This document shows positions 201 through 14,940 of a stretch of 14,940 bases of DNA, piece after piece. Source of the DNA: Ophryocystis elektroscirrha. Its lineage: Eukaryota > Apicomplexa > Conoidasida > Neogregarinorida > Ophryocystidae. How positions within the stretch are numbered: the first letter of the stretch is position 1; each line of letters opens with the position of its first letter. The stretch covers positions 7,469 through 22,408 of the forward strand of contig JAQIFP010000132.1 of assembly GCA_030141585.1 (NCBI GenBank). Direction: 5' to 3'. The notes beneath the pieces are model-generated. The model made no database searches and was not told the origin of the DNA. It saw only the letters and a list, made by a program, of their open reading frames with translations. Position numbers and translations under genes: made by a program.

Positions 201-3200
201 ATATTAACAAATTCAGTCCAACATTTAGCTTTTTTTTATGATTCAAGCAATAAAAATGAAGAATCCATAGATAGAATACGAAATTATATAAGTTCACGTA
301 TGACTGTATGGAAAAAACACCGCAAGAGGCAACTAATATCTAAAGATTTACCTGATTTTGAATTGATCCCCAAAATTGACTTTAATGAATCTATACTGTA
401 TATGAAAGCTCTTTTAAGTATATGGAAAACTTTATTCAAACTACAATGTAATAGTATTCCTAGCCGTATGAGTATCTGGGCTCCCGATCCTCAAGCTTGC
501 TGTATATTTTTGTATCCAGATATATCACTTTTGGAGAATTTGCCTCCACCCTCTGGTTTATTATTTAGCGGGTATCCTGAGTTTCTTACTATACCAGTAA
601 AAAATACCGCACAAAATTTAATTACCAAAGAAAATTCAAACCCCACAGAAAATTCGAACCTCTTCGAAAATTTAAGTTCCGCTGAAAACTACGATATAAA
701 AACTTTTCAGTCGAAAGAGTTTAAGAACCTCGAAGTAAAGCTCGACATGGAAACAGAGGACTTAGATGAATTAAGTTCTTCCGATTTATCGGAAGAAGAT
801 GAAATAGCAATTAAAAATATGGAATCTGTAATGGAAGAAGATAATTTTCAGAATTATAAACCTATAGATTTATTTCTTCTGTTTATAGACAAAGAAAATT
901 GTAAAAAAATCGGAAATAAACAGGAGAAACTATTGAAACATACTGCAAGTGTGTCCTCCATCAAACCAAAGTACAGTCAGAAAATCTTTAAGTCTAAAAC
1001 GGCTAGTCTCACTAAAACAAATCTATTGCTGTCTTCCTCCATTACAGATAATTCGACTGATTCCAATACACTTGAAATATCTGACAATATTCCTTACTCT
1101 GAATATACATTTAACGAATTTTTTGACAACCAAAATCAAAATATAAGCCACTCAAATACCGAGTGTCCAATGCTTGCTCTTAAAGACAGCACCAACAGTG
1201 CAAGTTTTCCTAATAAATTGAGTGATTTTGAGGAAAAATTGAACAATACTGAAAAAAGCTCACTGCAACCAGTCGCTGTATTTTCACTGGACAATAACAG
1301 TAAAACTTTAGCAGAAAGTTCACGGGAAGTTTCTAGTAGCAATTTATATGGAAAAAATATACTGGAAAGCGTTCATAGAGAATCCTCTCTTATCAGCACC
1401 AAAAGCGTACTTGCTGCAGTAAATCCTGAGGAATTTCTTAACAAGAGATTTAGTTCAAGTTCTTTTCCAAATTATGCAAAAATAATCCATAGAGACTTTT
1501 CCATGAAAGTTTCGGGAAGAAGTAAAAGCTTGCCCGTGCAATCTAAAATGGAATCACTTGATAAATTTTATGGAAGTTTCCCGGAAAATTTGAGTATCAG
1601 TCGATTTAGAAGCTTTGAAAAATTAACCAATGTACCAGATACTATCATTGATGAACCAGTAGAGATATTAGGTGCAAATAATGGTGAAACCAATAATGAG
1701 AAATATTCTGAAGCCACAGAAGTACCATGTGGCATAAATCATATTTTTGAAGACAATTTTGAAAACAAAAAAGAAACCAAATGTTACTCGAACGATTTAG
1801 ACGAATTATTTGATTCTCTTCAATATGACAAAAGTTATAAACAAATAATATTAGAAGATGGAGACCCTACGTTTTCTTTGTATGTCATAATACTCCTTAT
1901 AAAACAACATTATGCTAAAATTTCCGAAGTAAGGGTAGAAGCTTTAAGTATATTGAAAAGGCTGCTAAATAGGCTCCCAGAGAAATTGATTCTACTACGT
2001 GTTATTCCATGCATGCAAATTATTTTAGAGTCTAATAAAGTAAACATTGTAACAGTGGCTGCTGTCAAAGTAATCTGTAAAGCAATTCAGCATATAACTT
2101 TTTATTCCGTACGGCAAGCTTTCATAAAAAAGTATTTGTTCGCTATATTCAGTCAATATTTGACTGTTCCAAATATCGCATCAGTATTGTTGAAACAGGT
2201 TTTTGCTGACGTTGTTAAAGCTTATGCAGACACCCGTCCTAGCTTAACTGATCCCGCATTTTATACTCTCTTAAAACAATTAATTGCCATATCTCATCTT
2301 GAAATGAACAAAGCCATTCTTTTTGCGGTATAACTTAAATTTCTTCATATTTACTGATTATTATAGTATTTTTTCAGCACGCTGTACATATATATTTGTA
2401 CGTTACCCTATTCACAAAAAATATGTGTGAGCTCTGTATATATAGCATCTTTATATAAACTAGGTATATATACGACATATCTATGAACTATGTATATGTA
2501 CGACACATGTATGAACTATTTATATATAGTACCTCCATATAAACTATGTATATATAGCACATGTATATGAACTTTGTACATATACGACATATGTATGAAC
2601 TATGTATATATACGACATATGTGCAAACTATGTATATATAGCACCTATATATAATTTATATATATATACAAGACTTATGTATAAACTATGTGTAAGTTTC
2701 ATGTATGTGTATATTATGTATATATAAGACTTATGTATGAACTATGTATATACAGAATGAAATAAAATAAATTGAAAACTAAATTATGTATTACTAATCA
2801 AAAACACACTTAAAACATTGTTTTTAAATAAAAATATAGACGATATATATTTATAAAATACCGTATACAGTTTTTAGAATATTTATAGTTCAAATTTATT
2901 TTCCATTCACTAATAATATTATTAAAGTTAATTTAATTGCAGTGTTCCCGGTTCCCTTTGCTTCTCACTGAAACACAACTGCTCAATGAATTTTTTCCTC
3001 GAATAATAAGTTACATGAATACTGAAGACGTTGAACTGAGAAGTTCATTTTGTTCAAATACATCTATGATGATTAAATATTCAACTTCTGTTATATTGAA
3101 GAACCAGCTTTTGCAGTTTCTGGTACCTTGCTATGGTGATTTAATGATAGACTCTTCTGAAACTGTAATGTATATATATACATCAAATATATACATATAG

Positions 3201-3567
3201 GTGGTTGAGTCAACTATAATAGGGATTCTGAGTTTAGTGAAACACATATGTCAGTATTCAAAGTCACCGGAATTGTCTCTTTTACAATTAACCACTAAGC
3301 GAGAACAGCTTAGTCATATTACTGTTCAACTTGCAGAAAAAGCCATCCCTTTGATAACCCACCCAAACTCTAACATTAATAAACTAGCCAAAAAAATTTT
3401 TCTCAGTCTCTACCACGTAATCAACAATAATATTCTCATTTCTAAACATAACTCTAGTAGTAGTATATAGTATTTGTAAAGAATTTATTTATTTTTAAGC
3501 TTGACTTTATATAATTCTTGTCTGTGCATATATTAACAACACATTTATTACTAATAAATATCATATC

Positions 3568-3599
<32 letters not shown>

Positions 3600-6014
3600 A
3601 TAATTTAAATGTAGTATTTTAGATAATCAACATTATCCTTTATAATATTGTAGTAATAACAATTATAATAATATATTAATTATACAATATATATAGATAT
3701 ATATATATATATATAAAAAGAGAGATAAAGAAAGAGCTATGATATAGTAGGCAAAGTTTATTTAAATATAATAAATATTTTTGTAAAAATGAAAACAATA
3801 AATTAATAATAACTTTAGATTTTATATGGAAAAAATATTGGACTATTTATTGCATACTTGGGACCAGCATTCAAGAACGCAGGATTTAGTTACGCTGATA
3901 TAAAATATATATTATATTTTAAAAAACAACAAGATCAAAATATGAGTAAATACATTTTGCTTGATAATCCTGAATATTATACACTAAAATCTACAAACTC
4001 ACCACAGGTAATCTAATCAATATTGACTTATAAATATTTTTATATATCTTTTTTTAATCTTGCTCATTGTTATTATAATTATAATATATAAATATAAAAT
4101 AAAATAAAATAAATACAATTAAAACTATAATATATATATATATATGTTACGTCTAATAGTATTATATATACAAGATAATATAATACTATAACGTAATAAA
4201 ATTGATATATATATATATATTTATATGTATGTATATATAAATATAATAGAGTGAATTTTTTATTTGTTAAGCTGCTTGTTAATATTTAATAAATAAATAT
4301 GATTTTATATCTTGAAAAAATAAATGTCAGTATTCATATTTCTAAATGAGAAAAATATGTAGTAATACATAATTTGTTTTTTTTTTAGATTGAAATAGAT
4401 TCACTACCATATATACCTATAGACGACGTAAACAAAAATGATGCAAACCACGAAAAAGAATTATCTCGTACAGAAGAAGATATTTTATTGCAAATAACCG
4501 AAAAAGATAGACATCCAGAGAACTATGATACTTTATGGAAACTCGAAACTCCTGATAAATCTTCTTTGTTGCCAAATAAAATTGAAAGTGCGAACAATCA
4601 AACAACTGATTTAACTAGCGATATAATCCATACATATGGTTACTACAATTTAGATTGTAAATCCTTATTACATCGAACGCTGACGCATCACAAAATTTCC
4701 CAAGAAACTTCTAACATTAAATTGGAATCACTCGAAAATAATACTAAAATGATTACAAATAATTTACAAGAAAATAATAATTATCAATATTACTATATAT
4801 GGAATATAGATTCACTATATAATTCAGTAATGCAGCAGCCATGTGAGTCTATTATAAAGCTTAATACAGAATATAAACCTAAAAATTGGATAATGGCAAA
4901 CTCAAATATAATAATAGGAAATAAATGTGGGTCTCTAGAAATATTCCACACATTGCATACTCAAAATTCAAAAACTTCAGAATTACTTGAACTGAGTGAT
5001 TTAAAAAAAGAGTCATATATGGATAACATTGACTGGACTGTTAAGCAAATATGTTCATTAAACAATAGTACTATATATACAGTACATTCCAACGGGTATA
5101 TGAACTTTTGGGACAGGAGAGTTTGCAAGAACCCCATATTGAATCATCAATTACATATAAACAGCGGAATCCCGTCAATGTTAGAGATAAGTTCTTTATT
5201 TGACGTGTATATAGGAACCGAATCAGGTTATTTATTTGGAATAGATATAAGAAATTTACATAAAGATAATTTTCGATATACTATGCAGAAAAGATTTTTA
5301 TATAAAAATAAACCAACTGGTATATCTACCAGCGTAAAATATAATAATACGTTATATTTGGGATTAATGAATGGAAATAATACTCTAATAGAATATAATC
5401 TTAATAAGTCATATATAACATTTTCATATTTTTCTTCATATATATCTTATAAACAAAAAGAAGATTATTCTACACCTAGTAAGGATACACAAAAAACTCA
5501 TTATAATAACACTTATGTATCAAACTTATTGAATTTAAATAGTAATGATCAAATTGATAGTAATAAAGATTCATTAATGTACAAAGAAGAAAATAATAAA
5601 ACAATATTTTCCCAGCATCCCACCGTTAAAGTAGAAAATATAACAAATTTGAAAAATGATTTTTCATTTTTAGACTATAATAAGCCAAATACTGAAGATT
5701 GCGTAACATCTTTGTATTGTATTAATGACAAATCTTTGCTTATGGGTAGTACAGACAAATATGTCAGAAATATTAATAGAAAAATTGATTATTGCTCTTT
5801 AATTAGTAGTAATAAAACTGCTTCATATCAATACATGAATTTCCACCCAGACAACAACATATCTATACTGGAACGAATTTTAGATTACCCAGACAATCAT
5901 GACGCTTTTCCTCATAGTGACATAATCACAAGTGTTATTGGTTTTCCGATTTTAAATTCTAATTTAATGGTAGTCACTGCAAGCAGAGACGGTCTTATAA
6001 AAGTTTGGATTTAA
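201..6014 (+). CDS. VPS15: VPS15 (PI3-kinase regulatory subunit 4), 3' part, five exons; 5' end outside window
   Basis: VPS15 is the pseudokinase scaffold that holds VPS34 on endosomal and autophagic membranes for PI3P synthesis. Exons placed by hand: 201-2327, 2943-3164, 3201-3416, 3819-4007, 4389-6014 (stop TAA). All introns are phase 0 and GT...AG, giving 1459 residues here. Exon 1 opens after the acceptor TTTTTTGCAG. Its residues from about 555, such as VRVEALSILKRLLNRLP, look like the VPS15 HEAT repeats, which continue through exons 2-4 (LLNEFFPRIISYMN, AYLGPAF). The last exon is WD40: NGYMNFWDRR (about residue 1150), LFGIDIRNL, and the C-terminus HSDIITSVIGFP...TASRDGLIKVWI, a VPS15 hallmark (human ends HHDIITDV...TASRDGIVKVWK, recalled from memory). 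Residues about 140-545 are a Ser/Asn/Glu/Lys-rich insertion unlike family members. The N-terminal kinase domain is not in the window and is expected upstream. The family call is firm; exon edges are inferred. Confidence 0.88.
2328..2942 (+). other. VPS15 intron, 615 nt, filled by a minisatellite
   Basis: Donor GTATAA at 2328, acceptor ATTGCAG ending at 2942, phase 0. Frame continuation past the donor hits TAA at once. About half of the intron is a 28-nt tandem repeat (separate entry); the rest is AT-rich with no coding signal. Confidence 0.8.
2431..2757 (+). repeat. 28-nt minisatellite, seven in-register copies plus a degenerate tail
   Basis: Copies begin at 2431, 2459, 2487, 2515, 2543, 2571 and 2599, each exactly 28 nt. 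A typical unit starts ACTATGTATATATA, continues with a CGACATATG or AGCACATG block and ends TATGA. From 2627 the period drifts but related blocks (AAGACTTATGTATGAACTATG) recur until about 2757. The units differ by several substitutions, so the array is not a recent perfect expansion. Confidence 0.85.
3165..3200 (+). other. 36-nt mini-intron in VPS15
   Basis: GTAATG donor, ATATAG acceptor, phase 0. Read through, the frame stays open until the acceptor TAG itself, which is an in-frame stop. Splicing joins SSET to VVESTIIGIL, which keeps the HEAT pattern. Confidence 0.75.
3417..3818 (+). other. VPS15 intron, 402 nt, with (AT)n microsatellites
   Basis: Donor GTAATC, acceptor CTTTAG, phase 0. It holds (AT)13 at 3568-3593 and a second TA run near 3696-3714. 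No other coding frame is seen. The next exon (3819-4007) is 63 codons and was recognised by its open phase-0 frame and the AYLGPAF segment expected near the end of the VPS15 HEAT region. Confidence 0.7.
3568..3593. repeat. (AT)13 microsatellite in a VPS15 intron
   Basis: Thirteen perfect AT dinucleotides. Similar, shorter runs lie at 1-14, 4205-4220, 8272-8288, 12934-12951 and 14631-14646, all in introns or intergenic DNA and none in exons. Confidence 0.9.
4008..4388 (+). other. VPS15 intron, 381 nt, AT-rich
   Basis: Donor GTAATC after ACCACAG, acceptor TTTTTTTTAG at 4388, phase 0. It contains TA runs near 4131-4145 and 4205-4220 and nothing else recognisable. Confidence 0.75.
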
Positions 6015-6092
6015 GCCTTAAATTCATTGTTACTCTACCTTAAAAAAAAAAAAAATTTACTTTGTGCATATAGTTTTTATATCAAGCTACAC
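6015..6092. other. 78-bp convergent gap between VPS15 and the secreted-protein gene
   Basis: Only 78 bp separate the stops of the two convergent genes. It includes an A14 run near 6043. Both 3' UTRs and poly(A) sites must lie here or overlap the opposite gene. Confidence 0.6.
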
Positions 6093-6788
6093 TTAGTATT
6101 TTTTTGAGCTGGTTCTAACAGGCTCATAAATAATGATAGGAGTTTCATGTTGTTCTTTTCCGCAATTGTTTCCGCAACCACCGTGACGGTTTTTTTTGTT
6201 TCCTCCGTGTAAATGACGGTTTGGTTGTTCGGTTGAGGAAGTTGTTGAAGATTTCTTTCCCATATTGTCTGTAGCTTCGGAAGTGCTTTCTGAACCAATT
6301 CCAGAGGCAGATCCAGAACCAATTCCAGAGTTAGTTCCTGAACCAGATCCAGAGGTAGTTCCTGAACCAGATCCAGAAGCAACTGCAGCAGTAGCTTCAG
6401 CTAATTTACGGGGATTTTTCGTACTGGTTGTAGTGCTGCTGGTAGTGCTGCTGGTAGTGCTGCTGGTAGTGCTGCTGGTAGTGCTGGATTCTTGTAAAGT
6501 GCGGGGCATTTCAAGATTTGCCTGTTCAATGGCTTTTTCTCTTAGTTCCTCAGCTTTTTCACGTGCAATAGCAGCTTTTTCACGAGCTTTTTCTTCTTCC
6601 TTTTCTGTTTTGGATTTAGTTTTTAAATCCCTGTCAGCTTCTGGAGTATGTTGAGACCCACTGAACATGTTATTGAAAGCTTCTTTAGCTTTTTCGGCCA
6701 AAGATCTTTCAGCTTGTGCAGCTTCTTGGGCAGTACTGCAGCCAAATGCGATGAGGGAGCATAAAAGAATGTTTGCTGTTAATTTCAT
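6093..6788 (-). CDS. Secreted low-complexity protein with three RxLxE motifs
   Basis: A single-exon 231-aa protein, family not recognised. It starts at ATG 6788-6786 with a clear signal peptide: KLTANILLCSLIAFGC, with likely cleavage after STA (residue 20). Then come, in order: RSLAE at 28-32; a charged helix or coiled coil at about 55-92 with repeated REKA blocks; RTLQE at 96-100; an SSTT repeat at 101-120; RKLAE at 127-131; a Gly/Ser repeat at 138-168; and a basic His/Gly/Cys-rich tail (RHLHGG, HGGCGNNCGK) ending SSKKY. No transmembrane segment or GPI signal is seen. The coding DNA is visibly richer in G+C than its neighbours, and the frame is conserved through the repeats. RxLxE resembles the PEXEL/TEXEL sites cleaved in some apicomplexan exported effectors; whether it works so here is inference. 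Secretion is likely; function unknown. Confidence 0.8.
   Translation of the reverse strand: MKLTANILLCSLIAFGCSTAQEAAQAERSLAEKAKEAFNNMFSGSQHTPEADRDLKTKSKTEKEEEKAREKAAIAREKAEELREKAIEQANLEMPRTLQESSTTSSTTSSTTSSTTSSTTTSTKNPRKLAEATAAVASGSGSGTTSGSGSGTNSGIGSGSASGIGSESTSEATDNMGKKSSTTSSTEQPNRHLHGGNKKNRHGGCGNNCGKEQHETPIIIYEPVRTSSKKY
6332..6379 (-). repeat. 24-nt coding tandem repeat (Gly/Ser region), two copies
   Basis: Two near-identical 24-nt units at 6332-6355 and 6356-6379, with looser related units down to about 6290. They encode the GSGSGT-type stretch of the secreted protein. Confidence 0.75.
6431..6488 (-). repeat. 12-nt coding tandem repeat encoding SSTT
   Basis: Four perfect copies of TAGTGCTGCTGG (plus-strand sense) at 6431-6478 and a partial fifth. 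On the minus strand each encodes one SSTT unit. Perfect identity suggests a recently changing, length-variable array. Confidence 0.9.
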
Positions 6789-6945
6789 TTTTTTCTAACT
6801 TTAACTGAACTACTATTTGAGTTGAATTAAACTGACTTTGTGCTCATTCATACTCCTAGTGTGGAGTATCACTGGTTTTGCACCTTTTTGGGACATCCAC
6901 TTAAAAACCTTAGTGGTCAATTAATAACTTTTATATACTTATTCC
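6789..6945. promoter_or_regulatory. 157-bp divergent promoter region with short palindromes
   Basis: It lies between the start codons of the secreted-protein gene (minus) and the small five-exon gene (plus). It is less AT-rich than other intergenic DNA here. It contains an inverted repeat with 7-bp arms (ATACTCC at 6850-6856, GGAGTAT at 6863-6869, 6-nt spacer) and a second with 5-bp arms (CCACT at 6897-6901, AGTGG at 6912-6916). Promoter activity is inferred from position. Confidence 0.5.
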
Positions 6946-7540
6946 ATGATTAAAATGTATTTAAAACCACATTGTAATGTTTTGAAAACCTTATGAAAAG
7001 TTTTTTCAATAAAATTTAATCGTAAAATAATTAATATTAATTAAACAATGACTCGATTCAAACAAAATATATATGCTATTTTATAAACTTTTTTTTTTAG
7101 CTGCGATTCTTGATATCATAGTTTTTGCATATTCAAATGAGCCAAGATTCTCTCAAATTGCTGAAAATAATTTTCTAGGAGATGATGGAAGAATTACACC
7201 AGTATTAAACGTGCACATAGAAGTTCCAGAAACAGAAATGTAATTAGTGCACTCAATTACATTTTCATAGGAGTTACGTAGAGCAAAAAGATTACACCAA
7301 GTTGAATGATTTGATTAGCGATTTGCATAGAAAAGTAAAAACATTAGTATTTGAGCACTCATTTTACAGATTCAAAAGGATTATGAATATAATGATTCCT
7401 TATTAAAAATGCAAGAAAAAATGGTAAATTTACAAGCTTAAGTTCATTTGGCTTTGCAGATATCCGGAATAATTAGTATGAATTCCAAAGGGAAAGCTGA
7501 AATGATAGGAAATATGCAAAATATTTTAAATGAAATATAA
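6946..7540 (+). CDS. Small protein of unknown function, five exons with mini-introns
   Basis: This gene has no long open frame and was found by splicing. Exons: 6946-6973, 7101-7239, 7271-7334, 7370-7423, 7460-7540 (TAA). Introns are 127, 31, 35 and 36 nt with donors GTAATG, GTAATT, GTAAAA, GTAAAT and acceptors TTTTTTTTAG, TTTTCATAG, TTTTACAG, TTTGCAG. Phases match at every join, giving 121 aa. The product has a mixed N-terminal part (AILDIIVFAYSNEPRFSQIA) and a helical, coiled-coil-like C-terminal half (KLNDLISDLHRKIQKDYEYN, then GNMQNILNEI). I do not recognise the family. Exons 2-5 are well supported. Exon 1 is less sure: an alternative start at 6993 with donor GTTTTT at 7000 is also phase-compatible and would begin MKTAILDIIV. 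Confidence 0.72.
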
Positions 7541-7547
7541 TGGTATT

Positions 7548-10500
7548 TTATGAAGAAACAAATAAATGCAAAACTTCATTGGGCCATAAAATCCTATCGT
7601 TAACATATAATGCTGGAACTATTGTATATTTTCCATAAGTCAGAGGAAATAACAAAATACTTATTGAATGAGGTTCATTTGGCGTAAGATTTATTTCTTC
7701 TTCACAAAATGGAGACCAATGTAGAATAGATTGCTCGCAATGATTGTAGTTGCTATTTGTATCTAGACAGGTTAGTAAAAAGAAAGTTAATTTCTGTTCT
7801 ATTTGTGATTTCATAAATACACAAATTTTGATTGTAGCCCCACATACAGCCTAAATAAGGGCTTTGTTATTGCCATATTTTACCTTTTTCTTAGTAGCGA
7901 AATAGTTTGATTCAAAGTAAAAATTAAAAAAAATCTATAATTAAATTTTATATAACAATAAATTACCTTATAATCCACACAGCTGAGCAAATATTTTGAT
8001 ATGTAGTTGTTATATAGCATTTTAATATGAAAATCTTCAATAGAAATTCTTTTTAACATATCATCATCAATAACTTTAGCAGTGATAGAGTCAAAAAGGT
8101 TTTTTACTAAATATACATACGATGAAATAGTTGTTATATATTCTGTTACCAATTAACAAACACTTCCAACCATAATATATTTTAAATTATTAAAACAAGT
8201 TTAATAATTCTATATATTTTTAAATGGATATATACTGGAAAAGTTTGACATAGTATTTTACATCAATATAGTATATATATATATATATTAATTAATTTAG
8301 TTAAACTTACATGCACTGGTTACTATAGCTTCAGAGTTTTGGATATTTCTTGTTTCTATTTTAAAATCAAATGGGAAACTCCACCTAGTAAAGCTTTAAA
8401 AAAATACTACCACATACGTCTGTAATGTAGAAGGTAAAGATATAATGTTTTGAGAATGACTGGTACATATAATTTGTTGATTTGAACCATTGTAAAACTG
8501 TATTCGTAGTAGTAAAGGGTCATTGACATTTAGGAAGGACCAGTTAGAGAAACATATATTATTGTAGTTTAGAGCGTTTTGTATAGCTAGGCGCAATTTC
8601 TTTGACATGCAGTTTAAGTTTAATAATTTCATATTAGTAAAATTTGGTTGCTTGGGAATAACACTTATTGAACTAAGATGTATCAAAGTATCATTCTTTT
8701 GCGGAAACTCTTTACTTATTATGTAATATATATACATTGATGTATTTTTTTTGTCATTTAAAGAAACTTCAAATCTGAAACTGTGGAAATAGCTGATTAA
8801 GTATTTCAAGCATATTTCTATCAATATATTGGTCTTAATAAACATAAATAAAATATTGATTATAATTATTACTAACTATAGTACAAAACAACGAATAGAT
8901 AAATTCATAGGTATTTAAATAATACTAATGTTTATAATGTAATAAGTAATTAATAATTACAACTTAATATAATTTATCTGTAAGACCTAATTACTAAGGG
9001 ATTGATTTTCAAGGGTAGACAATTACCATATGTTTAATGAGGTTCTGTTTTCTTGACATAGCTGAATAGTAAGTATATCCTTTTTCTGTAGGACTAAATT
9101 TTTCAGAGTTACAAAATTATGATTATCAGTTATTTGCATTTTCTCTTTATTTTTTTCTATTTTATTTATAATTAAATTCATTTTCGCAGACTTCTTGAAA
9201 TGATTTGCTAAATCGTGTATTGTTTTTGTATTTGAAGGGGTTCTGATATCAAAGGCATCCGGTAAACTAGTAATGCACAAAGAATCTATGGTTGCTTCAA
9301 TAAAGTCAAACGAAATATTGACGTATACATTAGATTGAAATATACAATTATTAAGATTATAGTTATTTGTATATAATGCTTTCTTTTGATCTTGCAAACA
9401 CAGATTCATTCGGAATAAAGATTTATTAGGTATTATGTATAAAGCACATAAGCAATTTTTTTTTAATAAATTACTGATGCCAATATCTCCATGATTATAT
9501 AAATAAGAGGTAATGTTTTCATCATAGTTTAATATATATAAAGGAAGTTTTAACCCATAAAACTTACAGCTAATCCCTAGTATGTATATTATCTCTTCAG
9601 CTTTATAGGGTATGAAACAAAGCTCAATTTCCTGAAATCCTGGTTTCAAATGTATAATTTCTGGGTAAGTAAATGCATTACCAAGCACAATTAATTGTGT
9701 TTTAGATAATGTAATCGTAAATTTCAAAGGGTTATATAATAAAACTTTTACATATGTTAATCTGTTTTGAAACTCATTCGAAAATTGGTCTTTATCAAGG
9801 TTGATATTATTTGAACATTTATCAAACGGATGATATATAAATACATCATCAGAATTTTTGATATTTTTATCATTATTAAGCTCCTTTATATCCAAACATA
9901 ATTTATACAAACAATCTGAACTGTGCTCGTAATATTTATTCAAGACATTTATATCCAAGAGTATAGGTATTGATATATTACTAGAATTGCATATACCCCC
10001 TATTGTATATATATTTTTAAATTTTTTGAAATTAGAAATCCCAGTTATAAATAAAGGAGCATCTATTGATTTCAAATTAGTAATAGACTTTAAATTATCT
10101 AAAAGCTGCATTAATGTTTCTTGACTTAAGTATTCATAAAATTGATTGATATAAGAATATATAGACAAAGCTTTCGAAACACTATTTTGGTTTTTAGTAA
10201 TTAATTCATTGAATATATATTCTTGTACGTATACATATAATGTTTTATTGATTAAATTTTCAAATTTAAATATTGGCTCTGTACGTAATATATACATTTC
10301 AACATCAATCTGCAGCTTATTATCGTCGTGTAATGATTCACTTTGTATTTCATTAGTTTTTTGATTTATTACTATAAAATTTGAGTTTACATTGTCTAAT
10401 CTTGAAGCTTCATTTGAATGTTTATTAGTAAAATCAGATATAGTTTCTTTTTCTATTTTGTACGTAAATTTATTATTATTTTTTGATTTATTATAATTTT

Positions 10501-12250
10501 TAGGTTTTTGCGTAACAATATATTTAAATTTATCATTATATAAAGTATTATATTTATTTATCATATTTTTGAGATTAGTAACGTTATCGTATATTTCATT
10601 ATTAGAGTATTCCACATTATTATTTCCAGTATCATTGCAATAAGATATTCTGTCAGTAGTAACATCCAAAGTTATAAGAAAAAAAAACACATTTATTTGA
10701 TAAATTAATGCTGTTACTAAAAGTAGATACATTGAATCGTGATATTTATTCGCCTCTATTAGCAAGGTGGCATAATAATTGTTTTTTTCAATAAAATTTG
10801 CGATACTAGCAGTACAAATAAAGGTTAAAAATTTCTCTACATTAGTAATTTTGCTATTTTTAGTTAATTGTATAATATCATCAATTAATTGAATACATTT
10901 AATTTTATATCCACATATAGCTAAAAAACGTGTGTATCTAATATAGAACATAATAGTATTAATATCAATGCTTAAATCGTTTATTGGAGCTTCATTAAGA
11001 ATATTTACTATCAAGTCAATACAGCATTTTGGCATGCAAGGTTTTTTATTTATAAATTCTTTATGTTCAATTAAATTTATATTACATTCTATATAATTAT
11101 TTATATCATTTATGTATTTTGTATTAATTATTTTACTATTGTTGAAGCTTTGGGACGGTGAATACCGTATACTTTCATAAAACTCATTATCTGATATATG
11201 ACTTGATGTTATATCTACGGCTTGAGACGTTTTTGCAAGTGATACGCTTTCTAAAAGTAACTGACTTGATTTTGAACTGGACATTTGATTATAAGAATAA
11301 TACTTAGTATAATCATATTTAGCAGAACAAGCAACAATTTCAAAAGATTGAATTGATTGATATATCAAAGGAATATGCCACTTTTGTGCAGTTAATTTCC
11401 GTAAAATGTCCAGTTCTGTAGGTAAAGAAATGCTGTCATTACCTGGGATACACATGGACTGAAATAATTTGAGGGTATGAAGATTTACAGCAGACGCTAT
11501 GCGCATATAACACTCAATGTGATCACTATTACTATTGCTAATATACTCAACATAATTATTTATACTTAATATAGGTAAACCAATACTCATATAAATATCT
11601 CCAACTATTTTTTTATTATTATTAATGTTATTTCTTAATAAATAGTCGCAATCTGATATTGTCTCGAATTGAAGTGAATTTACTATTATATCTTTGTGTA
11701 AGCTTTTCTTACAATTAACTTCATTTAATTCATCTATCAGCCTATCATTTTTGTAAATTGATAAAATGAATAAAATATATTCTAGTATACAAGATATCAA
11801 ATAATAAATAGAGTCATTCACGTATTTTTTATTTTTATTGTAGCACTCGAAATTAAATATAATTTTGTTATAATTAAATTGTTTTTGAATTCTTTTTTTT
11901 ATAGTTGAAGTTAATAATGTATTAACATTATTACTGTCAAATATATATAATATACCATACACAGGATTCAGTATACCGCTTGTATCCAAATCTATAACAG
12001 GAACATATTTAATATACAGCTTTGAATTTGTCGGAAACGTGGTCATTAAGCTTGTTCGTAAATTTAACAGTTTTGGATATTTCATAACAAAATGAGATAT
12101 ATCGTTGATATATAAAAATTGAAAATGTTTATTTAAATGTGAAGTTGTACTGTATAATAATTTCCTGTCTAAATGTTCACTGCATATTATTGGTATATAT
12201 AATGACCAATAATCTGTTATACTGACATCTTGAGCCAATTCTTTATGCAT
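7548..12250 (-). CDS. TRAPPC9: TRAPPC9/Trs120-like TRAPPII subunit, six exons
   Basis: TRAPPC9/Trs120 is a large TRAPPII subunit, part of the exchange factor that activates Rab GTPases for Golgi and endosomal traffic. Exons (minus, 5' to 3'): 12250-9027, 8780-8418, 8384-8311, 8106-7967, 7934-7884, 7850-7548. Introns are 246, 33, 204, 32 and 33 nt; phases agree and the product is 1384 aa, near the usual family size. Family-like segments in order: VYGILYIFD (about 97-105), ISCILEYILFILSIYKNDRL (152-171), KKIVGDIYMSIGLPILSINN (213-232), then the Ig-like part with VKVLLYNPLKFTITLS (834-849). The C-terminus, VCGATIKICVF...ISILLFPLTYGKYTIVPALY, resembles the end of human TRAPPC9 (from memory) and crosses the last splice. 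The third intron's acceptor (8107) is the least certain, because another AG makes a stop. The start is the first ATG, downstream of a T-rich tract. Asn/Lys/Ile-rich spacers (about 580-650) look like lineage-specific filling. Confidence 0.82.
8107..8310 (-). other. TRAPPC9-like gene intron, 204 nt, with a TA run
   Basis: Donor GTAAGT at 8310, acceptor TATATTTAG ending at 8107, phase 1. It contains (TA)n at 8272-8288. The alternative acceptor GGTAACAG upstream would create TAA at the junction and was not used. Confidence 0.6.
8781..9026 (-). other. TRAPPC9-like gene intron, 246 nt
   Basis: Donor GTAATT at 9026, acceptor TTCCACAG ending at 8781, phase 2. The junction codon is TGT. A nearby alternative acceptor (TTTCAG six bases on) would create TGA, so the chosen site is favoured. 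Plain AT-rich sequence otherwise. Confidence 0.7.
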
Positions 12251-12361
12251 TAAAAAAAAAAAAAGCAGGTATATCCAACTTTTTTTTTTCTAATCGGAAA
12301 AGATAAAATACTTGAATTATTCCAATATAAAAAAAAAAAAAATTGATAAATAATCAATCCT
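12251..12361. other. 111-bp spacer between ING-like and TRAPPC9-like genes
   Basis: Both flanking genes are on the minus strand. The spacer carries three poly-A runs on the plus strand (poly-T on the coding strand), near 12252, 12283 and 12329. It must hold the ING-like 3' end and the TRAPPC9-like promoter. No conserved motif is recognised. Confidence 0.5.
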
Positions 12362-13901
12362 TTAATCTATAGTTTTTTTAGGAAGTACGAGATTGGAACT
12401 GATGCAATTTAAGCAGTACCAATTGTTTCCGTCTTCTTGTATAACTTCATCGAGAGGAGATTTTTGTTTTTTAACTTTTTTTTTTTCAGGGGGCTGACAG
12501 TACCCCACACAATCAAAGTGATACCATTGATCACAAAGATCACAGGCAACCATATTTCTAGCTCCTCCTATTTCACTCTGGTTACACGCTGGACATACTC
12601 CTGACCACGGATCTTCTAGTTTTTTTTTTGGCATAAATACCGATAGGTTTTTTGACTTTTTTTTTTCTAGTATTATTTGACTGCTAGATGTTACTGCTGA
12701 AAAAAGTATTCGAATCAATACTTTTCATCAAAATGTTCATATATTAAACATTTTATGATTCAAAGTTTATTATAGCAGATATAATCATGAAACTTGATAA
12801 TGCGGCATCAATATACACAAATAATCATAAAAATACATTATTTACATTGAATATAAACATTAAAATCAAATATACATATAAATTATTTATTAAACTCAAA
12901 TATACTATATTAATAATATCAAAATAATACATCTATATATATATATATATAGTTATAATAATAAAATAAAATATATATTTACATATATATACATTTGTGT
13001 ATATCAAATCTCATATACATATTAAAAATAAATGTGAAAATGTATATATATAAATATTTTTTTATATGTACGTACAAAAATAATATTTAATTTTTTACTA
13101 CATATATAAACCACCTTATTGAACTTTTTCACTTGTATGTAACTGTAAAATAGATCATTTTTTTTTATGCTATATGAAAGAATTATTAAACATCAAATAT
13201 AGAAGGTAAACAATTAAAAATATGCATTTTCAGATATAAATATTTTAATTATTACTTAAAGAGTTTTTTAACTCGCTCTTTTGAGATAATTTACTCGGAC
13301 TATCTGGTAAATCTAAACTTGTGTTTTTGGATCCTTCATTATATGGGGAATTGGGTATTGTTGTATTTTTTCTTCGAGAATGACGACTGTTTCCTGACGT
13401 CACTGAAGATACCTCGGATGTGGCTTGTCTCAATGCGCATCCATAGATGGTAGTTTCTCCTATACCTCCAGTTGAAGTCACTGTAGCTGTGCCTCCCGTT
13501 GTAGTATGGGCTGCTCGACTTGCTCGAGTAACTAAAAACGGTTCATTAGGTGCCGAAGATGAATGATTATGTGAATTATCATTTTCTGGTTGAGAAAAAG
13601 TTTGCTTGCGTAAGAGATCCATTTTGTACTGTAAAAAAGCAACATTTTGGTCTGTAATGCTGAGTTTTTGAACCAAAAAAGAACGTTGACGATGTATATG
13701 TAATAACAAGTATTGGTATAGCGATAAATTCACATCTTTTTCACGTGATTTGAAATCTTTATTAAATAATTCAGCAGATATTTTTCGCGCTACATTTTCT
13801 GCTGATTTTGCACGGCAATCCATACTTCGTAATAACTCCACATATCGTAAAAGCCAAGGGGTAACGTCAGCTGATATATCATCTTCATTCATAACCACCA
13901 T
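12362..13901 (-). CDS. ING-like chromatin reader with C-terminal PHD finger, two exons
   Basis: ING proteins bind histone H3 methyl-lysine through a C-terminal PHD finger and sit in acetyltransferase or deacetylase complexes. Exons: 13901-13256 and 12696-12362, with a 559-nt phase-1 intron (donor GTAATA, acceptor TTTTTTCAG); the product is 326 aa, a usual ING length. Residues about 8-101 are helical and ING-like: VTPWLLRYVELLRSMDCRAK, then HRQRSFLVQKLSITDQNVAF. A Ser/Thr/Gly-rich linker follows. The PHD finger is complete C4HC3: C250, C253, C267, C270, H275, C278, C310, C313, with WYHFDCVG and WYCLNC. About 22 extra residues, KKKVKKQK-rich, lie between C278 and C310. The Cys spacing (CxxC, CxxC) is that of general PHD fingers rather than the classic ING pattern, so the ING name is tentative. 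The ATG at 13901 is the first in frame; a GTG sits four codons upstream, and a further 5' exon is possible. Confidence 0.68.
12697..13255 (-). other. ING-like gene intron, 559 nt, AT-rich
   Basis: Inferred from matching phase at the donor AA|GTAATA and the acceptor TTTTTTCAG. It holds a TA run at 12934-12951 and repeated TATATAnATA-type words. I see no exon in it. If the two flanking exons are really separate genes, this would be intergenic. Confidence 0.6.
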
Positions 13902-13913
13902 TATACGCGCCAC

Positions 13914-14224
13914 TAGGTATAATTAGAAATACCAAAATTTTAAATTTTGCAAAATCTCATTAAACGCTTTAATTTAATACTTTAGTATCCACTGTAATCA
14001 ATATACTTAATAACTTCTATGAAATTTAAAGATTTTATTTTTTCCATTCATTATTAAACTGTGCAAGCACAGAAAAAAAAAATGTAAAACAAATTTGAGG
14101 ATTATTAAATTTTTTATCAAAAAAATTTATTATTTACTACTCAGAAATTATTTAAGTTATCTTTAAGTAGATAAATATGCTGAAACTATCTCAAGAAATT
14201 TTTATTTAATTTTAATCATCGTTT
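13914..14224. promoter_or_regulatory. About 310-bp divergent intergenic region
   Basis: It separates the start of the ING-like gene (minus) from that of the small four-exon gene (plus). AT-rich, with an A10 run near 14072 and no recognised motif. Position implies shared promoter function; a non-coding 5' exon for either gene cannot be excluded. Confidence 0.4.
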
Positions 14225-14583
14225 ATGAAATTTGTTGATACGAGCAAAATCTCAATTTCTCCGAAATTCCCTTGTCAAACTGCTTCGATAAAAAATGTAG
14301 TTATTCTCTAGTGTAATGTTCTTAATATAGGATAATATTTTTGACGTTACCTCTAACTCGACTCTTAAATACTCCATCAATAAGAAACCCAAAAAGTTGT
14401 CTTCCCCTTTACTAAGTATTTTTCATATTAATTTATTCAATATTTTCAGTCAGTGAAAGATATGGATTATCCAATCCTTTTGAGCGAACTCCGAAAACTA
14501 CTAAAGCTGTAAGAATATTCAGTATTACCGCCCAAACTTAGTTTACATGTATTAAATTGATTGCACCTTATACTATGCCGTAA
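14225..14583 (+). CDS. Small basic protein of unknown function, four exons with mini-introns
   Basis: Found by splicing only. Exons: 14225-14296, 14331-14415, 14450-14508, 14542-14583 (TAA). The three introns are 34, 34 and 33 nt with donors GTAGTT, GTATTT, GTAAGA and acceptors ATATAG, TTTTCAG, ACTTAG; phases 0, 1 and 0 all agree. The 85-aa product is basic and Ser/Thr/Lys/Pro-rich. It starts MKFVDTSKISISPKFPC, has a KKPKKLSSP cluster at about 42-50 (possible nuclear signal) and ends SERYGLSNPFERTPK...KLIAPYTMP. An NPF tripeptide lies at 61-63. No signal peptide, membrane segment or known domain is seen. The start ATG is the first in this frame, but more 5' exons are possible. Codon content is less AT-extreme than the flanks, which supports real coding. 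Confidence 0.68.
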
Positions 14584-14940
14584 CTGTACTAATTATTTAG
14601 TTCCAACCTCATTCGACGTTTCAAATAATTATATATATATATATATGCATACATATTCTTGTTTGTTATACTCATGCACATGTAATCATATTCACACATG
14701 TGCATATCTATACATATATTATTTATTATATATTATTTATAATATATAATAAATCAAAAATTAGATATCATATATTATATATTATATATTATTTATAATA
14801 TATAATAAATCAAAAATTAGATATCATATATTATATATTATATATTACATATTATATATTATATATTATATATTATATATTATATATTATATATTATATA
14901 TTATATATTATATATTATATATTATATATTATATATTATA
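14584..14940. repeat. AT satellite region: TA run, hairpin, 56-bp duplication and 7-nt tandem array
   Basis: No gene is seen. Contents: (AT)8 at 14631-14646; a perfect 15-bp-arm inverted repeat with a 4-nt loop at 14721-14754; a segment of about 56 bp repeated in tandem across about 14731-14843 (both copies carry AAATCAAAAATTAGATATCA); and from about 14830 to the window end a 7-nt array of TATATAT units that continues beyond the window. Confidence 0.8.

What the first reader, a model, noticed from the sequence alone, without database searches (positions are those of the whole stretch)
3165..14541. Two intron size classes: ten mini-introns of 31-36 nt beside seven of 127-615 nt
Ten placed introns are 31-36 nt (3165-3200, 7240-7270, 7335-7369, 7424-7459, 7851-7883, 7935-7966, 8385-8417, 14297-14330, 14416-14449, 14509-14541). 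The other seven are 127, 204, 246, 381, 402, 559 and 615 nt. Such a tight short class is near the lower limit seen for spliceosomal introns and leaves little room for a branch point and pyrimidine tract. The long introns differ in carrying microsatellites.
Basis: partly seen in the sequence, partly recalled or inferred. Interest (0 to 1): 0.75.

Follow-up and report, generated by a model that had tools for sequence, protein, structure and literature searches.

The report
Uniform 32-letter mini-introns across a genome
Genes of this small, AT-rich protist genome, probably that of a gregarine-like parasite, are interrupted by two kinds of intron, a very uniform one about 32 letters long and a longer, variable one; the short kind looks real and widespread and resembles one already described in a marine gregarine.

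Summary
Two intron size classes: confirmed. All ten listed segments are GT...AG, 31-36 nt, but only 3165-3200 is strongly supported by itself; the window's own gene-finder run recovers 1 of 10. The class is genome-wide. A length-blind gene-finder on 200 kb of another contig gives 46 GT-AG introns of 30-34 nt against 4, 8, 4 and 4 for four control pairs. Spliced alignment of six conserved genes places 37 introns, 27 of 28-41 nt (median 33) and 10 of 54-403 nt; GT-AG scores best in 6 of 6. Gaps between Pfam exon matches on 27 contigs: 17 of 53 at 26-42 nt, 4 at 43-70, 31 above 70, 1 below 26. Prp8, U6 and SF1 families are present. The host is probably a gregarine-like apicomplexan (inference). 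"Near the lower limit" is overstated: shorter spliceosomal introns are published, among them a 25-30 nt class in the gregarine Porospora. Unlike there, no fixed adenine near the acceptor and no branch-point motif beyond shuffles was found. One of seven long introns (402 nt) is doubtful. New member of a known kind.

The parts
3165..3200 (+). mini-intron, 36 nt, in a divergent gene modelled as exons 300-2327, 2943-3164, 3201-3470
   Evidence: GT-AG; the one window mini-intron found by the gene-finder; 0 of 300 shuffles reach the coding score at either intron cost; retention stops the frame
7240..7270 (+). mini-intron 1, 31 nt, of a small gene (7073-7545) whose product starts with a signal-peptide-like stretch
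   Evidence: fair support for the chain of three; gene not called
7335..7369 (+). mini-intron 2, 35 nt, same gene
   Evidence: as above
7424..7459 (+). mini-intron 3, 36 nt, same gene
   Evidence: as above
7851..7883 (-). mini-intron, 33 nt, 3' part of a 1384-aa gene model (12250-7548)
   Evidence: GT-AG and keeps the frame open; no gain in coding score and not found by the gene-finder
7935..7966 (-). mini-intron, 32 nt, same gene model
   Evidence: as above; the exon between it and 7851-7883 scores -1.7
8385..8417 (-). mini-intron, 33 nt, same gene model
   Evidence: as above
14297..14330 (+). mini-intron 1, 34 nt, of an 85-aa gene model (14225-14586)
   Evidence: weak (a wrong pair reaches 8.0 against 9.6); gene not called
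14416..14449 (+). mini-intron 2, 34 nt, same gene model
   Evidence: as above
14509..14541 (+). mini-intron 3, 33 nt, same gene model
   Evidence: weakest of the three: last exon scores 0.4, retention shortens the model by 3 codons only; best chain has 2 introns
2328..2942 (+). long intron, 615 nt, holding a 28-bp tandem array
   Evidence: gene-finder; the only GT-AG pair of that length in 2200-3000; array
4008..4388 (+). long intron, 381 nt, of a gene with a weak WD40 match
   Evidence: WD40 below its cut-off
8781..9026 (-). long intron, 246 nt
8107..8310 (-). long intron, 204 nt
   Evidence: keeps the frame open; not found by the gene-finder
12697..13255 (-). long intron, 559 nt, joining an N-terminal exon to a PHD-finger exon
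   Evidence: frame stays open; PHD match; the gene-finder kept the two as separate genes
6974..7100 (+). possible 127-nt intron at the start of the small gene; an unspliced start at 7073 is an alternative
   Evidence: GT-AG pair; not tested further
3417..3818 (+). doubtful 402-nt intron that would fuse two genes
   Evidence: gene-finder fused the genes; the upstream model has its own stop at 3468-3470

Best explanation
These are ordinary U2-type spliceosomal introns of a compact, AT-rich genome whose introns fall into two length classes: a tight class of about 28-41 nt (peak 31-34) and a broad class of roughly 54-650 nt. Shown here: GT-AG segments of the tight length interrupt conserved proteins where alignment requires removal, in some genes side by side with long ones. 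Inferred: both classes are removed by the same spliceosome through intron definition, using a weak donor (AAR|GTAWDT), a short T-rich stretch and AG, with a degenerate branch point; the tight length reflects the smallest span this spliceosome handles well. The host is inferred to be a gregarine-like apicomplexan.
For: Length-blind gene-finder on 200 kb: 46 GT-AG introns in the 30-34 nt bin against 4, 8, 4 and 4 for TG-GA, AG-GT, GA-TG and GC-AG; at a stricter cost 37 against 6, 9 and 2 at 28-38 nt. Spliced alignment with free intron length: gamma-tubulin 33, 54, 32, 33, 41; beta-tubulin 40, 32, 403, 291; CDC48 32, 31, 71, 35, 148, 34, 28; actin 91; actin-like C27 34, 32, 32, 32, 32, 31, 34, 33, 29, 82, 33; actin-like C1 32, 290, 33, 344, 38, 36, 30, 208, 35. 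GT-AG scored best in 6 of 6 genes against four other pairs and needed no stop or frameshift (37 introns). Pfam exon gaps, 198 rows of five families: 17 of 53 at 26-42 nt, 4 at 43-70, 31 above 70, 1 below 26, on 27 contigs. PROCN of Prp8 E 1.4e-230, U6 E 2.6e-27, SF1-HH E 2.2e-24.
Against: No transcript data. In the window the gene-finder recovers 1 of 10 mini-introns. U2 snRNA was not found (46 of 713 candidates scored; inconclusive). The gene-finder shows no excess of long introns: 109 of 200 nt or more against 108, 111, 109 and 87 for the control pairs, so the long class rests on homology. Actin is the reference for three of six genes, and the margin for the C110 actin is small (1500 against 1468). 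Some placements lie in poorly conserved stretches (the 28-nt one of CDC48, the last ones of actin-like C1). Four further actin-like loci aligned too poorly and were dropped. Acceptors score slightly lower in mini-introns (P 0.026).
Confidence: 0.93

Rival explanations
1. Chance: AT-rich DNA holds many GT...AG pairs of this length, and the reader chose those that keep a frame open.
For: 358 GT-AG pairs of 31-36 nt in the window; six of the ten window mini-introns have weak individual support and the gene-finder recovers one.
Against: As an account of the class: the peak appears with no length preference and only for GT-AG, and in conserved proteins.
Confidence: 0.03
2. The segments are removed from DNA rather than RNA, like internal eliminated sequences of ciliates.
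For: Similar lengths are known for short ciliate elements (recalled).
Against: GT-AG boundaries beat four other pairs, though TA-TA boundaries were not tested; spliceosome genes are present; no such process is known to me in Apicomplexa (recalled, not searched).
Confidence: 0.01
3. Two separate splicing modes exist: mini-introns have their own consensus and an anchored branch point, as reported for Porospora.
For: Acceptor scores differ slightly (P 0.026); Porospora mini-introns have their own consensus (PMC9250747, passages). The highest adenine column is -12 in 118 mini-introns, and -12 is also 0.56-0.60 in the 27 mini and 10 long homology-placed introns.
Against: Donor scores do not differ (P 0.31; the score was trained on the mini-introns themselves, and only 12 long ones, six of them from the window, were compared). 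No adenine column exceeds shuffles (P 0.33 for 27, P 0.10 for 118); no motif beyond shuffles.
Confidence: 0.1

Closest known systems
Mini-introns of the gregarine Porospora cf. gigantea (PMC9250747; passages read)
   Same: Compact apicomplexan genome of about 9 Mb; a narrow mini-intron class (25-30 bp, 71-72% of introns) beside longer introns
   Different: Mode 28 there, 31-33 here; a strongly conserved adenine 6 bp upstream of the acceptor there, not found here; GC 54% there, 29% in the 200 kb sampled here
Introns of Babesia microti, 20 bp (as cited in PMC9250747)
   Same: Very short spliceosomal introns in an apicomplexan
   Different: Shorter, with a possible branch-point adenine as cited
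Introns of Gregarina niphandrodes and Cryptosporidium parvum (Table 1 of PMC9250747)
   Same: Short modal lengths, 37 and 44
   Different: Medians 95 and 65, that is, less dominated by the shortest class
Introns of Theileria parva (PMC2612703; abstract and passages read)
   Same: Bimodal intron lengths in a small AT-rich apicomplexan genome
   Different: Modes 55 and 80, closer together and longer
Paramecium introns, medians 24 and 25 nt (PMC12862383; passages read)
   Same: Tight short class, AT-rich, GT-AG, U2-type
   Different: Ciliate; annotated maximum 100 nt in P. bursaria, so no comparable long class

Membership tests
U2-type spliceosomal introns | GT-AG boundaries that interrupt a conserved reading frame | tested here: met
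   37 introns in 6 genes; GT-AG best in 6 of 6 against four other pairs
U2-type spliceosomal introns | Spliceosome encoded in the genome | tested here: met
   Prp8 family, U6, SF1; U2 not found, inconclusive
U2-type spliceosomal introns | Branch-point motif | tested here: inconclusive
   No motif beyond dinucleotide shuffles in 133 mini-introns; highest adenine column at -12 among 118, P 0.10
U2-type spliceosomal introns | Removal from mRNA | not testable with these tools
   No transcript data
Porospora-type mini-intron class | Narrow length mode that holds most introns | tested here: met
   27 of 37 at 28-41 nt. The Pfam-gap survey gives only 17 of 53; I think it undercounts short introns that an alignment reads through, as the stops inside matches suggest
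[quoted passage not shown]
   A is 0.29-0.35 at -6 to -8 in 118 and 0.22-0.41 in the 27 homology-placed mini-introns
Porospora-type mini-intron class | Splice-site consensus distinct from long introns | tested here: inconclusive
   Donor P 0.31, acceptor P 0.026, only 12 long introns
Ciliate internal eliminated sequences | TA direct repeat at both ends | not tested
   GT-AG boundaries fit; TA-TA was not tried

The most novel reading that the evidence does not exclude
In this lineage mini-introns are recognised mainly by their length, a fixed span of about 32 nt between a weak donor and the nearest downstream T-rich AG, with no sequence-specific branch point. This would be a second, different solution to mini-intron splicing within gregarine-like Apicomplexa, where Porospora anchors an adenine near the acceptor.
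Probability: 0.25. Interest if true: 0.6.

Novelty: new member of a known kind. Interest (0 to 1): 0.42.

Why it matters
An AT-rich, compact, probably gregarine-like lineage with a sharp mini-intron class, apparently without the anchored adenine reported for Porospora, gives a natural comparison for how short an intron the spliceosome can use and what replaces the branch-point signal. In practice, gene predictors and aligners with larger minimum intron lengths would split or lose such genes: keeping any one of the ten window mini-introns puts a stop before the model's own. Low gene counts published for similar genomes deserve a check with this in mind.

Tried and rejected
Branch-point search: an expectation-maximisation motif search of widths 5 and 6 on 133 mini-introns gave log-likelihood gains of 19.6 and 23.5, against up to 19.0 and 23.2 in three dinucleotide shuffles each, which got slightly fewer iterations. 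TGTAA is over-represented (18 introns against 6.4 +/- 2.8 in shuffles) but spread over -9 to -24; no reading is claimed. The 133 include 118 de novo introns of which about a fifth to a third may be false (118 against 21, 37 and 24 in controls).

Homology for the window's own genes: no Pfam match across a mini-intron in the models scanned, no relative at E 0.001 for the WD40-like protein or at E 10 for the 85-aa protein, no solved structure for the 3' part of the first gene. The window's mini-introns rest on frame and coding score only.

Organism: no match to the LDH/MDH C-terminal family, which argues against Cryptosporidium (that it has these enzymes is recalled). Genome size and composition resemble the published Ophryocystis elektroscirrha (27% GC, 8.1 Mb by k-mers, 8.6-8.9 Mb assembled; PMC10210345: abstract, part 1 of Results, three short sections, word finds), but contig number and total length do not match, so identity is not claimed. 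A retinoblastoma-family search rang nowhere, controls included, and says nothing.

Dropped rows: loci L012, L014, L015 and L016 aligned too poorly to actin and were left out of the 37. A first Pfam-gap count (17 of 52) used only part of the tables (41 of 43, 86 of 111, 3 of 9 and 11 of 22 rows); one search repeats it with all 198 rows of five families and is the one cited. The 65 WD40 rows were not used, because the repeat does not order exons. One of the four gaps at 43-70 is a 33-nt intron in the gamma-tubulin alignment, misjudged because profile positions overlap.

Full report
What was claimed.

Check of the window. All ten segments begin with GT and end with AG on the strand implied, with the stated lengths. 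Such pairs are common by chance here, 358 in both strands, so frame and coding score decide. Retaining any one of the ten puts a stop before the spliced model's own stop, though only three codons earlier for 14509-14541 (10 of 10). Support is strong for 3165-3200, fair for the three at 7240-7459, weak for the three at 14297-14541 (a wrong dinucleotide pair reaches 8.0 against 9.6, the best chain has two introns, and 12 of 300 shuffles reach the score at the higher intron cost), and not independent for the three on the minus strand, which keep a long frame open but add no coding score. A gene-finder run on the window, with a preference for short introns, recovered only 3165-3200. None could be checked by homology, since the searches found no usable relatives. 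For the seven long introns GT-AG placements exist; the 402-nt one fuses two genes and is doubtful. Tandem arrays lie in only some of them and also between genes.

Genome-wide class, without homology. The window is part of an 8.0 Mb assembly of 118 contigs. I ran a simple codon-model gene-finder on 200 kb of another contig, with introns of 12-700 nt allowed at equal cost. GT-AG gave 46 introns of 30-34 nt; TG-GA, AG-GT, GA-TG and GC-AG gave 4, 8, 4 and 4. At a higher cost the counts at 28-38 nt were 37 against 6, 9 and 2. With a preference for short introns the counts were 118 against 21, 37 and 24, so a fifth to a third of that larger set may be false. Introns of 200 nt and more showed no excess (109 against 108, 111, 109 and 87), so this test says nothing for the long class.

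Genome-wide classes, with homology. I aligned six conserved genes to reference proteins with a spliced aligner that puts a constant price on an intron of at least 12 nt, whatever its length. It placed 37 introns: 27 of 28-41 nt (median 33, commonest 32) and 10 of 54, 71, 82, 91, 148, 208, 290, 291, 344 and 403 nt. GT-AG scored above four other pairs in all six genes and needed no stop or frameshift; the margin was small for one actin gene (1500 against 1468). One actin-like gene has eleven introns, ten of them 29-34 nt; another mixes short and long ones. Independently, distances between neighbouring Pfam exon matches of chaperonin, kinase, tubulin, actin and proteasome families (198 rows) fall into two groups: 17 of 53 at 26-42 nt, 4 at 43-70, 31 above 70, 1 below 26, on 27 contigs. 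Short introns are probably undercounted there, because some matches read through stops.

Machinery and signals. The Prp8 PROCN family, U6 snRNA and the SF1-HH family are present; that PROCN marks Prp8 is recalled. U2 snRNA was not found, but only 46 of 713 candidates were scored. The mini-intron consensus is weak: AAR|GTAWDT at the donor, T-rich at -3 to -8, then AG. Donor scores do not differ from those of 12 long introns (P 0.31); acceptors are slightly weaker (P 0.026); the score was trained on the mini-introns and half of the long ones are from the window. No branch-point motif exceeds shuffled controls in 133 mini-introns. The highest adenine column is -12 in the 118 de novo introns (0.47, P 0.10) and 0.56 at both -12 and -17 in the 27 homology-placed ones (P 0.33); the two sets overlap in part. 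This is a lead, no more.

Host. Actin and beta-tubulin match best to entries that I recall as Toxoplasma. Of the 120 listed of 7998 relatives of CDC48, the best are unnamed or oddly filed proteins, then Vitrella and Cryptosporidium. A tree of 38 sequences keeps the host's CDC48 out of the Cryptosporidium, Gregarina and coccidia-piroplasm groups and beside two unnamed proteins, but on a long branch whose place the tool calls unsure. Size and composition resemble Ophryocystis elektroscirrha, but the assembly figures do not match and identity is not shown. Gregarine-like apicomplexan is therefore an inference.

Comparison. A narrow class of 25-30 bp introns making up 71-72% of introns is published for the gregarine Porospora, with a strongly conserved adenine 6 bp upstream of the acceptor (PMC9250747, passages). 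The class here is of the same kind, with a different mode and without that adenine. Introns of 15-25 nt in ciliates (PMC12862383, passages) and 20 bp in Babesia microti (as cited in PMC9250747) are shorter, so the lower-limit argument does not hold. In the Ophryocystis paper a find for intron, splice and exon gave one mention in the main text, an aligner setting. The listings of searches showed no other gregarine intron survey; only open-licence PubMed Central papers are held.

Verdict.

Noticed in passing
G000:C2:1-200000 (L017-L036): The crude gene-finder makes 96 gene models in 200 kb, about 480 per Mb, against 299 per Mb published for Ophryocystis elektroscirrha. If the two genomes are alike, annotation without mini-introns may undercount genes; the predictor is rough and the link unproven.
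   Followed up: partly
window 6093-6788, minus strand: Intronless predicted protein with a signal-peptide-like start and Ser/Thr-rich and Gly/Ser-rich repeats, mucin-like in appearance; no Pfam family over its cut-off.
   Followed up: no
window 14714-14940: The contig ends in a long 7-bp array (ATATATT, 32 copies); the window's end is the contig's end.
   Followed up: no
window 12362-13901, minus strand: N-terminal segment plus C-terminal PHD finger, reminiscent of ING proteins (recalled); only the PHD finger is matched over its cut-off.
   Followed up: partly
whole genome G000: No match to the lactate/malate dehydrogenase C-terminal family, while 13 of 14 control genomes ring.
   Followed up: no
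P0002 and P0029: CDC48 proteins filed under a lotus and an oomycete group together with full support in the tree; possibly contaminants from unnamed organisms.
   Followed up: no
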